The notes below the pieces were generated by a model. That model saw nothing but the letters and a program-made list of their open reading frames with translations, ran no database searches and was not told the origin of the DNA. Below, piece after piece: positions 5,642-24,583 of a DNA stretch of 64,000 bases; within the stretch, counting starts at the first letter, position 1, and each line of letters begins with the position of its first letter. This DNA is from Rhodothermales bacterium. GTDB taxonomy: Bacteria > Bacteroidota > Rhodothermia > Rhodothermales > JANQRZ01. The position numbers were made by a program, and so were the translations under genes. The stretch covers positions 62,001 through 126,000 of the forward strand of contig JANQRZ010000014.1 of NCBI GenBank assembly GCA_028284265.1, in the 5' to 3' direction.

Positions 5642-7162
5642 TTAATGACTGGCCTCGCCTGACGCCTCCTGGTGCCGCCCTACGGCATGACCGTTACTCG
5701 CTACCGCTCGGCGTCGGGCGCGGACATAATCGGAGACATGATCACCGTAGGACACGACGAATGGCCCCAAGTGGTCGGACCCACGAATGGTGTCTCGGCA
5801 GTTGGTGGACCCGCAGGTACAGGCAAAGTCAGGCATCGCCGCGCCGTAGAACGTTGCGTAGTCCACCGTGACCTCCTCCCCCGCGGCGAGCGGTCGGCGA
5901 GCGACGAGGTTGAGGCCGTCGATCCACGCGGTCGGGTCGCAGGCGTGGTTGATGGGCCGCCAGTCTTCGGGATCGTCGTGCCACATCACCCAGACCTCGT
6001 CGGTCAGCGGCCACGCATAGCGGGCAAACCAGTCCTTGCGGCGCTCGTCCCAGTGCCGCTCAACGTGGCTGCGGGTGACGAGGACATGCGGCTGCTCCTC
6101 ATAGCGCTGAACGATGTCGCCCTCGGCTATCGGCTCGGTGGCGAAGGTGCCATAGTTACCCTCACGGTCGGCGCGGACCTCCCAGCGCGTTCGCTGCCGC
6201 CGGCTGCGGGCGAGGGCTGCCGCGATGATCTGATCAACGAAGCCTTCGTGTCCCGCCGGATCGTTCTGTAGGATGAGGTCGGCGCTGCCGGGATCAGAGG
6301 GTGGATAGAAGATGGCGCAGTTCGGGTTGATCTCCAGCATCCACACGTCGCCCTCGGCATCGACCCGGAGGTCGCAGCGCCCGTAGCCTGCCCCGCCGAG
6401 TCCGGCGAAGAGGCGACGCGAGGCTTCCTTGAGTCGCTCTGCGAGATCGGCGTCTTCTACGGGCCGGGCATGCATGCCATGATACTCGACCCATTTCAGG
6501 TCATAGTGCTTGAACGTCTCGCCCTCGGGAAAACGGTAGGCTACCGGCGTGTAGGCGGTCGGCTCGCCGTCCGGATGCTCCGCGACGAGAACCGTGAACT
6601 CGCGCCCCTCGATGAACTCCTCGACGAGGGCCGCCCCGCCGCCGTAGCCCGCCTGCATCAGCCGGACCTGCTCGCGCAGTGCCTCCGGTGTCAAGACGCG
6701 CGACGCCTTGGTCATCCCAATGCTGCTGTAGCTGTTCGGGTGCTTGACGATCAGCGGGAACTGGAGCGTCTCGATCGCACGGTCGAGGTCGGCCTCGGTG
6801 CGGACCTGCACCCCGGCAGGCGTCTTGACACCCCAGGCGTGGCAGACGCGCTTCATCGCTTCGCGGCTCGGCTCGTAGCACGCTGAGGTCGCCCCGGTAA
6901 ACGGCAGGCTGAGCCGTTCGAGCGCCTGCACCACCTCGATCCCCGGCGCATCGCCGTCCCACGACCCGTCGCACAGATTGAGGAATACGTCATAGTCCTT
7001 CTGCGCGAGACCGATGATCTGCGGCACGGCCGTGGCCTTCGTCAGGTAGACCATCTCTGCCTCGTGCCCGTCGAGGTAGACCGTCGGATCATAGGGTAGG
7101 TCATCCTCCGCGAGAGGCGACTCGGACTCGTCGTAGGTGTAGCAAAGAATGCAGACGCGCAC
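5642..7162 (-). CDS. ATP-grasp (D-Ala-D-Ala ligase-like) fused to a SET domain
   Basis: This 506-residue protein joins two enzymes. Residues 1 to about 315 form a D-Ala-D-Ala-ligase-type ATP-grasp: a pre-ATP domain (FLNLCDGSWDGD), the ATP-binding phrases FPLIVKHPNSYSSIGMTKAS and VEEFIEGREFTVLV, and the metal-binding end GRCDLRVDAEGDVWMLEINP with Asp, Glu and Asn in the expected places. Residues about 330-465 form a SET methyltransferase domain: entry GNYGTFATEPIAEGDIV, the pseudoknot core INHACDPTAWIDG and AGEEVTVDYATFYG, followed by a Cys-rich post-SET-like tail CTCGSTNCRDTIRG. Known ATP-grasp enzymes of this class ligate carboxylates to amines; SET domains methylate lysines. The combined substrate is unknown. 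It is transcribed away from the Smr gene at 7272 and sits alone, 118 bp downstream-facing the sorting-domain proteins. Confidence 0.82.
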   Translation of the reverse strand: MRVCILCYTYDESESPLAEDDLPYDPTVYLDGHEAEMVYLTKATAVPQIIGLAQKDYDVFLNLCDGSWDGDAPGIEVVQALERLSLPFTGATSACYEPSREAMKRVCHAWGVKTPAGVQVRTEADLDRAIETLQFPLIVKHPNSYSSIGMTKASRVLTPEALREQVRLMQAGYGGGAALVEEFIEGREFTVLVAEHPDGEPTAYTPVAYRFPEGETFKHYDLKWVEYHGMHARPVEDADLAERLKEASRRLFAGLGGAGYGRCDLRVDAEGDVWMLEINPNCAIFYPPSDPGSADLILQNDPAGHEGFVDQIIAAALARSRRQRTRWEVRADREGNYGTFATEPIAEGDIVQRYEEQPHVLVTRSHVERHWDERRKDWFARYAWPLTDEVWVMWHDDPEDWRPINHACDPTAWIDGLNLVARRPLAAGEEVTVDYATFYGAAMPDFACTCGSTNCRDTIRGSDHLGPFVVSYGDHVSDYVRARRRAVASNGHAVGRHQEASGEASH

Positions 7163-7685: not shown

Positions 7686-8384
7686 GTGCCCCCTCGCCCT
7701 CGCATAGGCATTACGACCTCGCTTAATGACGGCGAGCAGCGCCTCGACCGGCGCTATGTACTCGCTGTGGAACGCGCGGGCGGCCTGCCTCTCATCGTCC
7801 CAATGCTGGAGTCGGACGAGGCCGCCGAGGCGTTCGCCGCCCTACTCGATGGCCTCGTTGTGACCGGCGGCCCGGCGATTACGGACGGCATGGTGGGTCA
7901 ACTTCCGCCCGACATCGAAGAAACTGCGGCGGCCCGTCTCGCGTCTGACGTTCGCTTACTCTCTTCCTTCTTCGCGGCTCGGCGTCCTGTGCTCGGCATC
8001 TGCTACGGCATGCAGCTTGGCAACGCCCTTGCAGGCGGGACGATCTATGCCGACGTGCAAGCGCAGTATCAGGAAGCCACTGCCCATAGCCAGAAGCGGG
8101 GTGCCACAAACCATGCGGTTCTCGTAGAGCCGGACACCCACTTAGGCCAATTGCTCGGCCACGACGCCTTCTCGGTCAACACGCGCCATATCCAAGCCAT
8201 CGAAGAGACAGGCAACGGTTTCCGCGTGGCAGCCCGCGCACCGGACGGCGTGGTCGAAGCCATTGAGAGCGCGGATGGCCTGTTCATCGGCGTCCAGTGG
8301 CATCCCGAGCGAATGGACGCCTCGATGGACGCCCTTTTCCGCGATCTTGTTCAGAAAGCCGCCATGCACCCCTCCTCGGCCTGA
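7686..8384 (+). CDS. Class I glutamine amidotransferase-like hydrolase (PuuD/peptidase C26 family)
   Basis: The 232-residue protein begins with a GTG start and matches the gamma-glutamyl-gamma-aminobutyrate hydrolase family in length and motifs. The nucleophile elbow is GICYGMQLGN (Cys near residue 104), the phrase GLVVTGGPAI lies upstream, and the His-Glu pair is in GVQWHPERM near residues 203-211. Such enzymes hydrolyse gamma-glutamyl amides in polyamine breakdown or similar glutamine-derived substrates. No polyamine genes are nearby, so the true substrate is unclear. It lies 87 bp after the Smr gene and 79 bp before a transglycosylase gene on the same strand. Confidence 0.85.
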   Translation: MPPRPRIGITTSLNDGEQRLDRRYVLAVERAGGLPLIVPMLESDEAAEAFAALLDGLVVTGGPAITDGMVGQLPPDIEETAAARLASDVRLLSSFFAARRPVLGICYGMQLGNALAGGTIYADVQAQYQEATAHSQKRGATNHAVLVEPDTHLGQLLGHDAFSVNTRHIQAIEETGNGFRVAARAPDGVVEAIESADGLFIGVQWHPERMDASMDALFRDLVQKAAMHPSSA

Positions 8385-21724: not shown

Positions 21725-22219
21725 ATGCACGAACGCAGTCTCGCAATATTGCTTTTTTCTGGTGTGGCTGTTCTCATTTGGATCGGCTTCTTGGTGTTCG
21801 TTGCCTCACCAGAAACGGGAGCTTGGTTGCAAGTCGGTGTTGGTATTGCCATAATGACAGCGACTGCGTTTGTGAGTGCATGGCTTGCGCCAACTCTCAC
21901 GGTTGAGGCTCAAAGGGGCGCAAATCTCTGGAAAGGGGCCTACCTCGGTGCCTTCATCGTATTCGCCAGTTACGCGATAGCCGCTGTATTACTTGCAGTG
22001 GGCATTACGCTTGTAGCGACGGTCGGAGAGTCAGGCTTTACAGTTCGCCGCGCATTTGAGAGTGTTCTGTTCATTGCGTACCTAGGCTTCGCGGGTGCCA
22101 TTACAATACTCAGCCCCGGACTCGTTCTTGGTGCTGCTGCCGGTGCGTTGTTCTACCGGATCACACGTTCACTGCAAACGCGGGCCCCAGAATCTCCACC
22201 TGAGCACTCGGCTATTTGA
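21725..22219 (+). CDS. Small integral membrane protein, unknown function
   Basis: The 164-residue product has four likely membrane segments: about residues 7-27, 34-54, 70-97 and 118-142 (for example LAILLFSGVAVLIWIGFLVF and ILSPGLVLGAAAGALFY). I recognise no family. The DNA is noticeably less GC-rich than adjacent genes, with more A/T-ending codons, suggesting recent transfer. It lies between the OsmC gene and the ergothioneine pair, with 64 bp to egtB. It could be a small transport accessory or immunity-type membrane protein; this is not determined. Confidence 0.6.
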   Translation: MHERSLAILLFSGVAVLIWIGFLVFVASPETGAWLQVGVGIAIMTATAFVSAWLAPTLTVEAQRGANLWKGAYLGAFIVFASYAIAAVLLAVGITLVATVGESGFTVRRAFESVLFIAYLGFAGAITILSPGLVLGAAAGALFYRITRSLQTRAPESPPEHSAI

Positions 22220-22283
22220 CCTAGGGATAGAACGTGACACCGCGTGGTGCGTAGGAGAAGCCCCGTTACCCATCGCCACCACC

Positions 22284-23606
22284 ATGCCCGTCCTCGCCCC
22301 CTCGCTTGACCGTGAGACCTTCCTCGCGCTTCCGCTCGCCGAGCAGTACCACACCGTCCGCGCCTTCACCGAGCACCTCACCGAACCGCTCACGACCGAG
22401 GACTACGTCGTCCAGTCGATGGCCGACGTTAGCCCGACGAAGTGGCACCTCGCACATACGACGTGGTTCTGGGAAACCTTCGTCCTCGGCGAGTACGCCG
22501 ATGGCTACGCGCTCTACGACGAAGCCTACCCGTTCCTCTTCAACTCGTACTACGTGCAGGCGGGCGAGCGTCACTGTCGGGCGCAGCGGGGCTACCTCTC
22601 CCGCCCCACCGTCGCCGAGGTCTTCGCCTACCGCGCCCACGTCGATGAGGCGATGCAGCGGCTCCTCGCTGGCATTCCCGGCGATGCGGACTCAACGCTC
22701 GCCGAAGTCGTCCGCGTGGGCCTCAACCACGAGCAGCAGCACCAAGAGTTGATGGTGACGGACATCAAGCACGTCTTCTCCGTCAACCCGCTCCGCCCGG
22801 CCTACCGCGAGCGGTCGGTGACGCCCGCCCCCGACCCCGGCCCGATGCAGTGGATCGCCTTCGACGCTGGGCTGCACGAGGTCGGCTACCTGCCCGAGCG
22901 CGACGGTGTGTTCTCGTTCGACAATGAGACGCCGCGTCACCGGGCCTTCGTCGAGACCTTTGCCCTCGCCGATCGGCTCGTAACATGCGGCGAGTTCATG
23001 GCGTTCATGGAAGACGACGGGTATGAACGCGCCGAACTGTGGCTCTCCGAGGGCTTCGCTACGGTGCAGGCCAATGAGTGGACCGAGCCCTTCTACTGGG
23101 AGCAGCGCGACGGTGAGTGGCAGCACTTCACGCTCGCCGGGATGCAGCCCGTCGACCCGCACGCACCCCTCACGCACATCTCGTACTTCGAGGCCGACGC
23201 CTTCGCCCGCTGGGCCGGGGCACGACTCCCGACCGAGTTCGAGTGGGAAGTCGCCAGCGAGGGACTCCCGATGACGGGCAACTTCGCCGAGGATGACGTG
23301 CTCCACCCGATGCCACCGGAGTTCGTTGCGTCGGGCGGCGACGGAGCACCCGCAGCGCCCCAGCTCCGCCAACTCTTCGGCGATGTGTGGGAGTGGACGC
23401 GGAGCCAGTATTCGCCCTACCCCGGCTACAACCCGCTCCCCGGCGCGCTCGGCGAGTACAACGGCAAGTTCATGTCAAACCAGTTCGTGCTGCGCGGCGG
23501 AAGCTGCGCGACGAGCCGAACCCACATACGCCGGACCTACCGCAACTTCTTCCCCGCCGATGCAACATGGCAGTTCACCGGCATCCGGCTGGCGAAAGAC
23601 CTCTAG
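22284..23606 (+). CDS. egtB: Ergothioneine biosynthesis protein EgtB (iron-dependent sulfoxide synthase)
   Basis: EgtB joins a sulfur donor (gamma-glutamylcysteine or cysteine) to trimethylhistidine using oxygen and non-haem iron. Start at the ATG at 22284 gives 440 residues, normal for the family; longer frames upstream run into the previous gene. The N-terminal DinB-type domain provides the iron ligands: the first His in KWHLAHTTWFWE near residue 55 and the HX3HXE pair in NHEQQHQELM near 152. The C-terminal FGE-sulfatase domain has GEFMAFMEDDGY and the closing RGGSCATSRTHIRRTYRNFF. It is followed after 23 bp by egtD, and the two almost certainly form one operon. Confidence 0.95.
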   Translation: MPVLAPSLDRETFLALPLAEQYHTVRAFTEHLTEPLTTEDYVVQSMADVSPTKWHLAHTTWFWETFVLGEYADGYALYDEAYPFLFNSYYVQAGERHCRAQRGYLSRPTVAEVFAYRAHVDEAMQRLLAGIPGDADSTLAEVVRVGLNHEQQHQELMVTDIKHVFSVNPLRPAYRERSVTPAPDPGPMQWIAFDAGLHEVGYLPERDGVFSFDNETPRHRAFVETFALADRLVTCGEFMAFMEDDGYERAELWLSEGFATVQANEWTEPFYWEQRDGEWQHFTLAGMQPVDPHAPLTHISYFEADAFARWAGARLPTEFEWEVASEGLPMTGNFAEDDVLHPMPPEFVASGGDGAPAAPQLRQLFGDVWEWTRSQYSPYPGYNPLPGALGEYNGKFMSNQFVLRGGSCATSRTHIRRTYRNFFPADATWQFTGIRLAKDL

Positions 23607-23629
23607 CCCCCCTCCTAAGCTTCTCCTTT

Positions 23630-24583
23630 ATGCAACCCGCCCCACCTGCCACCACCGAAGAACGCGACGCCTTTCTGCGCGATGTCATTGAGGGCCTGTC
23701 CGCCTCGCCGAAGTCGGTCCCCTGCAAGTATTTCTACGACGAGGTCGGCTCTGCACTCTTCGACCAAATCACGGAGACGTCGGAATACTATCCGACGCGG
23801 ACCGAGCTGGCGATCATGCAGGCGCACGTCAGCGAGATGGCGGACCAGATCGGAAGCGGGGCCGTGCTGATCGAGCACGGCAGTGGGTCGAGCCTCAAAA
23901 CCCGCGTGTTGCTCGATCACCTTGGCGACCTCGCAGCCTATGTCCCCATCGACATCTCGCGCGAGCACCTCCTCGCCACCGCCGAGCGCTTGAGAATGGC
24001 CTATCCCGACCTTGCCATCCTCCCCGTCGCCGCCGACTATACGTCTGCCTTTGCCCTACCCGACTTGCCTGACGGCAAGCGGGTCATTTACTTCCCCGGC
24101 TCGACGATTGGAAACTTCGATGAGGAGCAGGCTTCGGCGTTTCTGGAGCAGGCCGCCCGCATCGCCGGGCCGGGTGGTGGCCTCCTGATCGGTGTGGACC
24201 TGAAGAAAGACCCTGCCGTGCTCGAAGCGGCCTACGACGACGCAGCAGGCGTGACCTCGGACTTCAACCTGAACCTCCTCGACCGGATCAACCGCGAACT
24301 CGGCGGCACTTTCGACCGCGACCAGTTCAAGCACCGGGCGATCTGGAACAAGGCAGCGAGCCGGATCGAGACCTATCTCGTCAGCCTCCGCGACCAGACC
24401 GTAGAGATAGATGGCAAGGCGTTTCACTTCGGCGAGGGCGAAGCAGTACATACCGAGAACTCGCACAAGTACACCGTCAAGGGCTTCGCAGCCTTCGCAG
24501 CCCAGCACGGGTTCCGCGTGCGCCAGTGCTGGACCGATCCCGACGACCTGTTCAGCGTACAGTATTTCGAGACGGAGGCGTAG
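23630..24583 (+). CDS. egtD: L-histidine N(alpha)-methyltransferase EgtD
   Basis: Catalyses three S-adenosylmethionine-dependent methylations of histidine, the first step of ergothioneine synthesis. Start at the ATG at 23630 gives 317 residues, the family length. Signatures include [20 protein letters not shown] near residue 34, the SAM-binding [18 protein letters not shown] near 85, [14 protein letters not shown] near 160, and the C-terminal [16 protein letters not shown] that contributes the substrate pocket. It lies 23 bp after egtB. Because EgtB and EgtD suffice for the core pathway when a C-S lyase is supplied elsewhere, ergothioneine production is a reasonable inference. No egtC or egtE was seen nearby. 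Confidence 0.96.

What the first reader, a model, noticed from the sequence alone, without database searches (positions are those of the whole stretch)
5642..7162. ATP-grasp ligase fused to a SET methyltransferase
One protein carries a D-Ala-D-Ala-ligase-type ATP-grasp with its metal-binding ending (MLEINP) and a complete SET core (INHACDP, TVDYATFYG) plus a Cys-rich post-SET-like tail. A peptide or amide ligase tied to a lysine methyltransferase points to a modification system for a peptide, polyamine or protein tail that I cannot name. Seen directly: the motifs. Inferred: that both halves are active and work on one substrate.
Basis: partly seen in the sequence, partly recalled or inferred. 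Interest (0 to 1): 0.75.

Follow-up and report, generated by a model that had tools for sequence, protein, structure and literature searches.

The report
Two-in-one amino-acid ligase and methyltransferase
A bacterial protein joins an enzyme that links amino acids to an enzyme that adds methyl groups, and its relatives in many phyla sit in a conserved gene set that probably builds and exports a small methylated peptide that nobody has yet identified.

Summary
ORF 5642-7162 on the minus strand (506 aa) is an intact Ddl-type ATP-grasp ligase fused to an intact SET methyltransferase with a post-SET zinc motif. It is not an artefact. Full-length homologs occur in isolates and MAGs of about a dozen phyla, and all catalytic residues are conserved in 42 aligned proteins. 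In most relatives the fusion lies in an operon: small BurB-like SET protein, second Ddl-like ATP-grasp, the fusion, and an ABC exporter membrane domain. In 200 Chitinophagaceae genomes the fusion and the small SET co-occur in 58 of 60 cases, including 6 where they are unlinked or on different contigs. One Myxococcales protein fuses both SETs to the ligase. The residues that define D-Ala:D-Ala ligases are replaced, and the genome has its own Ddl. In sequence both SETs are nearest to BurB, which methylates free methionine, and no precursor-peptide gene is conserved. My best reading is a small-molecule assembly module: one amino acid is methylated, ligated to another by acyl-phosphate chemistry, and usually exported. 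The window's genome keeps only the fusion, with no second SET. Substrate and product are unknown. The library searched holds no description of the system, only eukaryotic TTLL12, which is inactive and has the reverse domain order.

The parts
5642..7162 (-). gene for the ATP-grasp-SET fusion protein, 506 aa
6194..7162 (-). Ddl-type ATP-grasp ligase half, residues 1-323
   Evidence: Pfam PF07478 68 bits; Foldseek to DdlB 8evz 1.1e-20
6323..6340 (-). MLEINP, Mg-binding end of the ATP-grasp (E277, N279)
   Evidence: E277 and N279 invariant in 42 homologs
5783..6184 (-). SET methyltransferase and post-SET, residues 327-460
   Evidence: Pfam PF00856 39 bits; Foldseek to BurB 9l4t 2.5e-8
5939..5950 (-). 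NHAC, SAM-binding motif and first zinc Cys (N405-C408)
   Evidence: H406 and C408 invariant in 42 homologs
5858..5863 (-). D434-Y435, catalytic-position Tyr; equivalent to BurB Y124
   Evidence: Y435 invariant in 42 homologs; alignment with BurB
5798..5821 (-). post-SET Cys motif C448-x-C450-x4-C455
   Evidence: invariant in 42 homologs
5645..5782 (-). C-terminal tail of type I fusions (GDHVSDYV motif), residues 461-506
   Evidence: conserved in type I rows of alignment A1; helix 478-496 in the model

Best explanation
The protein is a bifunctional small-molecule enzyme. Its ATP-grasp half phosphorylates a carboxylate with ATP and Mg2+ and hands the acyl phosphate to an amine, making an amide (peptide) bond between two amino-acid-like substrates that are not D-Ala plus D-Ala. 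Its SET half moves a methyl group from SAM to the same building block or to the product. The BurB-like features favour a free amino acid or short peptide (S- or N-methylation) over a protein lysine. In the complete form of the system a second small SET and a second Ddl-like ligase repeat the pair, giving a twice-methylated, two-ligation product, and an ABC-type membrane protein exports it. The window's genome has the stand-alone form, with the fusion only. Shown: fusion, conservation, intact active sites, operon, co-occurrence, altered Ddl specificity residues. Inferred: both activities, one shared substrate, small-molecule product, export.
For: All ATP-grasp and SET catalytic residues are invariant in 42 fusions. 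Ddl acceptor motifs are replaced: YEAKY becomes YDLKW or YALKT, and NTxPGxTxxS becomes NPNCxxFY...GSAD. The NCBIfam Ddl cut-off is missed by far (74 against 245.65 bits) and a true Ddl is elsewhere in the genome. Around 87 non-redundant loci the second ATP-grasps (63), small SETs (55 in 49 loci) and the ABC membrane protein (30 loci, directly downstream) are all on the same strand as the fusion. Chlorobium has small SET, fusion, full ABC exporter, short SET. Co-occurrence: 58 of 60 fusion genomes also carry the small SET (Fisher 2.4e-45), 6 of them unlinked or on different contigs; the ABC protein occurs in 25 of 200 genomes, never outside this system. An ATP-grasp-SET-SET triple fusion lies in a Myxococcales MAG, 41 bp ahead of a PALP (cysteine-synthase-like) gene. 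The small SET matches BurB at 1e-14 against 3e-5 for the best histone enzyme; the fusion SET at 2e-8 against 6.5e-5. BurB methylates free Met (PMC12542666, PMC7496086). No conserved precursor peptide.
Against: No substrate is known. The structural comparison does not separate BurB from MLL-type SET domains (2.5e-8 against 5.2e-8). BurB's SAM- and Met-contacting residues are only partly conserved here. The window's genome lacks the second SET and no exporter gene adjoins the fusion, so export and a second methylation are not shown there. The co-occurrence P value ignores shared ancestry of the genomes.
Confidence: 0.6

Rival explanations
1. A protein- or peptide-tail modification system: the ligase adds an amino acid to a protein end or side chain and the SET half methylates a lysine of the same protein.
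For: SET domains mostly methylate protein lysines; the eukaryotic fusion TTLL12 belongs to a protein-modifying family (PMC3520985); Foldseek ranks MLL4 next to BurB.
Against: Aliphatic residue at the Phe/Tyr-switch position in 40 of 42 fusions; sequence nearest to BurB; no conserved small ORF near 89 loci; exporter in the operon.
Confidence: 0.18
2. A cell-wall enzyme: a Ddl offshoot that makes an altered peptidoglycan dipeptide, methylated by the SET half.
For: The nearest solved ligases are all Ddl; the Ddl-like family includes D-Ala-D-Lac and D-Ala-D-Ser ligases.
Against: Ddl specificity residues lost; canonical Ddl present; no conserved mur or van neighbours in the clusters examined; an exporter would not be needed.
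Confidence: 0.08
3. A pathway to a methylated polyamine conjugate.
For: A same-class genome (L152) has a SET-AdoMet decarboxylase-spermidine synthase fusion 25 bp from a SET protein whose C-terminal half looks like an ATP-grasp.
Against: That locus has the reverse domain order and its ligase part has no Pfam hit; no polyamine genes recur near the true homologs.
Confidence: 0.06
4. One half has lost catalysis and serves as a scaffold or regulator, as in TTLL12.
For: Precedent: TTLL12 lacks critical residues and shows no methyltransferase activity (PMC3520985).
Against: Here every catalytic residue checked in both halves is invariant across 42 proteins of about a dozen phyla.
Confidence: 0.05

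Closest known systems
BurB / MSMT, SET-domain methionine S-methyltransferases of DMSP synthesis (PDB 9l4t, 9l4v)
   Same: BurB is the nearest solved relative of both SET types by sequence; H-x-C motif, catalytic-position Tyr, Cys3 post-SET, aliphatic residue two before the Tyr; works on a free amino acid.
   Different: BurB is 172 aa, stand-alone, acts with decarboxylase, transaminase and dehydrogenase genes; here SET is fused to a ligase and, in most relatives, paired with a second ligase and an exporter.
D-Ala-D-Ala ligase (Ddl) family, DdlB (PDB 8evz)
   Same: Same fold and ATP/Mg machinery.
   Different: Acceptor-pocket motifs replaced, NCBIfam cut-off missed, separate true Ddl in the genome, SET fused at the C end.
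TTLL12 (eukaryotes)
   Same: Only SET plus ATP-grasp fusion found in the literature library.
   Different: SET-like domain first, TTL-type ATP-grasp second, key residues missing in both, no methyltransferase or tubulin tyrosination activity seen in vitro (PMC3520985).
Graspetides such as microviridins (from general knowledge)
   Same: Paired ATP-grasp ligases next to an ABC transporter.
   Different: Ddl-type rather than RimK-type ligases; no precursor peptide gene; SET enzymes instead of acetyltransferase.

Membership tests
D-Ala-D-Ala ligase | Ddl C-terminal ATP-grasp domain | tested here: met
   PF07478 68 bits over cut-off 24; Foldseek Ddl
D-Ala-D-Ala ligase | curated Ddl family score (TIGR01205, 245.65 bits) | tested here: not met
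   74 bits
D-Ala-D-Ala ligase | D-Ala pocket residues (YEAKY Tyr; PGxTxxS) | tested here: not met
   replaced by YDLKW/YALKT and PNCxxFY...GSAD
SET methyltransferase (class V) | SET Pfam score over cut-off and SET fold | tested here: met
   39 against 22.4 bits; Foldseek SET hits
SET methyltransferase (class V) | SAM motif NHxC, catalytic-position Tyr, post-SET Cys | tested here: met
   invariant or nearly so in 42 rows
SET methyltransferase (class V) | methyl transfer from SAM | not testable with these tools
   needs enzyme assay
protein-lysine methyltransferase | Phe/Tyr at the switch position two before the catalytic Tyr (general knowledge: G9a, DIM-5, MLL1) | tested here: not met
   L/V/M/I in 40 of 42
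BurB-like methionine S-methyltransferase | nearest relative by sequence among solved structures | tested here: met
   2e-8 fusion SET, 1e-14 small SET, histone enzymes 6.5e-5 and 3e-5
BurB-like methionine S-methyltransferase | nearest relative by fold | tested here: inconclusive
   BurB 2.5e-8, MLL4 5.2e-8
BurB-like methionine S-methyltransferase | DMSP pathway neighbours (decarboxylase, transaminase, dehydrogenase) | tested here: not met
   no such cluster was recognised among the recurring neighbours of 87 loci
graspetide RiPP | precursor peptide gene | tested here: not met
   no small ORF conserved near the operons
TTLL12 | SET-like then TTL domain, critical residues lost | tested here: not met
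   order reversed, residues kept (PMC3520985)

The most novel reading that the evidence does not exclude
A widespread, undescribed biosynthetic system in which SET methyltransferases and Ddl-like ligases form modular pairs, fused or split, that build and export a new class of methylated peptides (possibly sulfonium- or betaine-bearing). SET enzymes would then be a common natural-product tailoring class in bacteria.
Probability: 0.4. Interest if true: 0.82.

Novelty: new variant of a known kind. Interest (0 to 1): 0.63.

Why it matters
The malleicyprol paper says natural-product methyltransferases had been found only in classes I and III before BurB (PMC7496086). This module would make BurB one of a large group, spread over about a dozen phyla and paired with ligases. 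It predicts an exported metabolite in culturable strains, so it can be tested directly, and it warns against annotating bacterial SET genes as protein-lysine methyltransferases by default.

Tried and rejected
Mis-assembly or chance fusion: rejected by full-length homologs in isolates. The cell's own Ddl: rejected, canonical Ddl on another contig. RiPP precursor: no conserved small ORF. Defence system: no PADLOC hit. Phage or plasmid cargo: no hits. Type I fusions without a neighbouring small SET might have it elsewhere in the genome: true in one Planctomycetota genome, not in most. First GTDB scan with a single sequence found nothing; the alignment scan worked. Literature searches for SET plus ATP-grasp or Ddl gave only TTLL12 and an irrelevant paper. 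My notebook entry '>500 in GTDB contigs' overstated: 566 candidates include plain ATP-grasp relatives; only the best 80 were examined.

Full report
Observation. The ORF is at 5642-7162, minus strand, 506 aa, GTG start. Homologs begin at the same residue, so the start is credible. Pfam finds a Ddl-type ATP-grasp domain (residues 122-280, 68 bits) and a SET domain (337-435, 39 bits), both over their cut-offs. AlphaFold2 with 42 homologs gives pLDDT 91.3 and pTM 0.86. Foldseek assigns the whole model to Ddl (8evz, 1.1e-20) and the C-terminal half alone to SET (BurB 2.5e-8, MLL4 5.2e-8).

Not an artefact. Of 297 genomes of the phylum 15, own included, carry a full-length fusion. An alignment scan of GTDB contigs kept 80 loci, nearly all spanning both halves, among them the isolates Chlorobium ferrooxidans, Sediminibacterium goheungense, Ferruginibacter paludis and Lacibacter cauensis. 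A tree of 48 fusions splits with full support into type I (window, Chlorobium, Chloroflexota, Gemmatimonadota, Myxococcota, Planctomycetota and others) and type II (mostly Chitinophagaceae); 11 phylum labels occur, Chlorobium not counted among them. Many rows are MAGs, so single placements may be binning errors.

Active sites. In 42 fusions the ATP/Mg residues K104, K140, E181, E188, R262, D264, E277 and N279 and the SET residues H406, C408, Y435, C448, C450 and C455 are invariant. Y435 aligns with Y124 of BurB; residue numbers read from the alignment agree with those in the BurB paper (PMC12542666). The position two before this Tyr, which is Phe or Tyr in histone lysine methyltransferases (general knowledge), is aliphatic in 40 of 42, as in BurB (Met122). 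Against Ddl the ATP site is kept but the D-Ala pocket is not: the YEAKY Tyr and the PGxTxxS motif are replaced. The genome has a canonical Ddl on another contig. So the ligase half should still make acyl phosphates but use other substrates.

Context elsewhere. Around 87 non-redundant loci the conserved neighbours are a small SET protein (~165 aa, 55 copies in 49 loci), a second Ddl-like ATP-grasp (~380 aa, 63 copies) and an ABC six-helix membrane protein without ATPase (PF13748, 30 loci, directly downstream), all on the same strand as the fusion. Chlorobium has small SET, fusion, full ABC exporter and a 120-aa SET. In 200 Chitinophagaceae genomes the fusion occurs in 60, the small SET in 60, both in 58 (Fisher 2.4e-45, not corrected for kinship). 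In 6 of the 58 the two genes are unlinked or lie on different contigs (in one, G293, 1.7 Mb apart on one contig), so co-occurrence is not merely linkage. The ABC protein is in 25 genomes, all with one or both of the others. A Myxococcales protein is ATP-grasp-SET-SET, and a Planctomycetaceae locus is the same with a frameshift. The Myxococcales gene is followed after 41 bp by a PALP enzyme of the cysteine-synthase kind.

Context in the window. The window's genome has one SET domain only, this one. Its neighbours, a Smr-domain gene, a peptidase C26 gene and secreted proteins (by eye), do not recur as a cluster elsewhere. Other type I genomes also lack the small SET. The fusion therefore can stand alone.

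What the SET half acts on. By phmmer the fusion SET finds BurB at 2e-8 and MLL1 at 6.5e-5; the small SET finds BurB at 1e-14 and the best histone enzyme at 3e-5. BurB methylates free methionine to S-methylmethionine (PMC12542666; PMC7496086). With no conserved precursor peptide and an exporter in the operon, a small-molecule product is most likely. The fold comparison does not decide between BurB and histone enzymes, so this step is inference.

Mechanism proposed. SET half: SAM-dependent methylation of an amino-acid building block or of the product. ATP-grasp half: carboxylate phosphorylation and attack by an amine. Full module: two methylations, two ligations, export. Confidence 0.6. Rivals: protein modification 0.18, cell-wall precursor 0.08, polyamine conjugate 0.06, one dead half 0.05.

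Known or new. Both domain families are known. The combination is not described in the library searched, apart from TTLL12, which has the reverse order and no methyltransferase or tubulin tyrosination activity in vitro (PMC3520985). I file it as a new variant of a known kind (ATP-grasp peptide assembly with SET tailoring).

Noticed in passing
window 22095-24583, plus strand: Overlapping genes that read like EgtB and EgtD of ergothioneine biosynthesis (by eye from the translation only); 15 kb from the fusion.
   Followed up: no
L152:6989-10318, minus strand (G203, same class as the window): A SET domain fused to AdoMet decarboxylase and spermidine synthase (617 aa), followed after 25 bp by a 483-aa protein with SET first and an ATP-grasp-like second half: an independent SET/ligase pairing with a polyamine link.
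   Followed up: partly
L163:6997-10328, minus strand (own genome, contig C16): A different Ddl-like ATP-grasp (331 aa) beside a lysine 2,3-aminomutase-like gene.
   Followed up: no
L164:2041-5872, minus strand (G211): Downstream of a type I fusion: FGase-like, MATCAP (tyrosine carboxypeptidase family) and glutathione-synthetase-like ATP-grasp genes in a row.
   Followed up: partly
window 7686-8384, plus strand: Peptidase C26 (gamma-glutamyl hydrolase family), divergent from the fusion with a Smr-domain gene between; gamma-glutamyltranspeptidase-like genes lie near L164 and L145.
   Followed up: no
L070 and L053, downstream convergent: Cystathionine/methionine gamma-lyase-like gene next to the fusion in two Gemmatimonadota contigs.
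   Followed up: no
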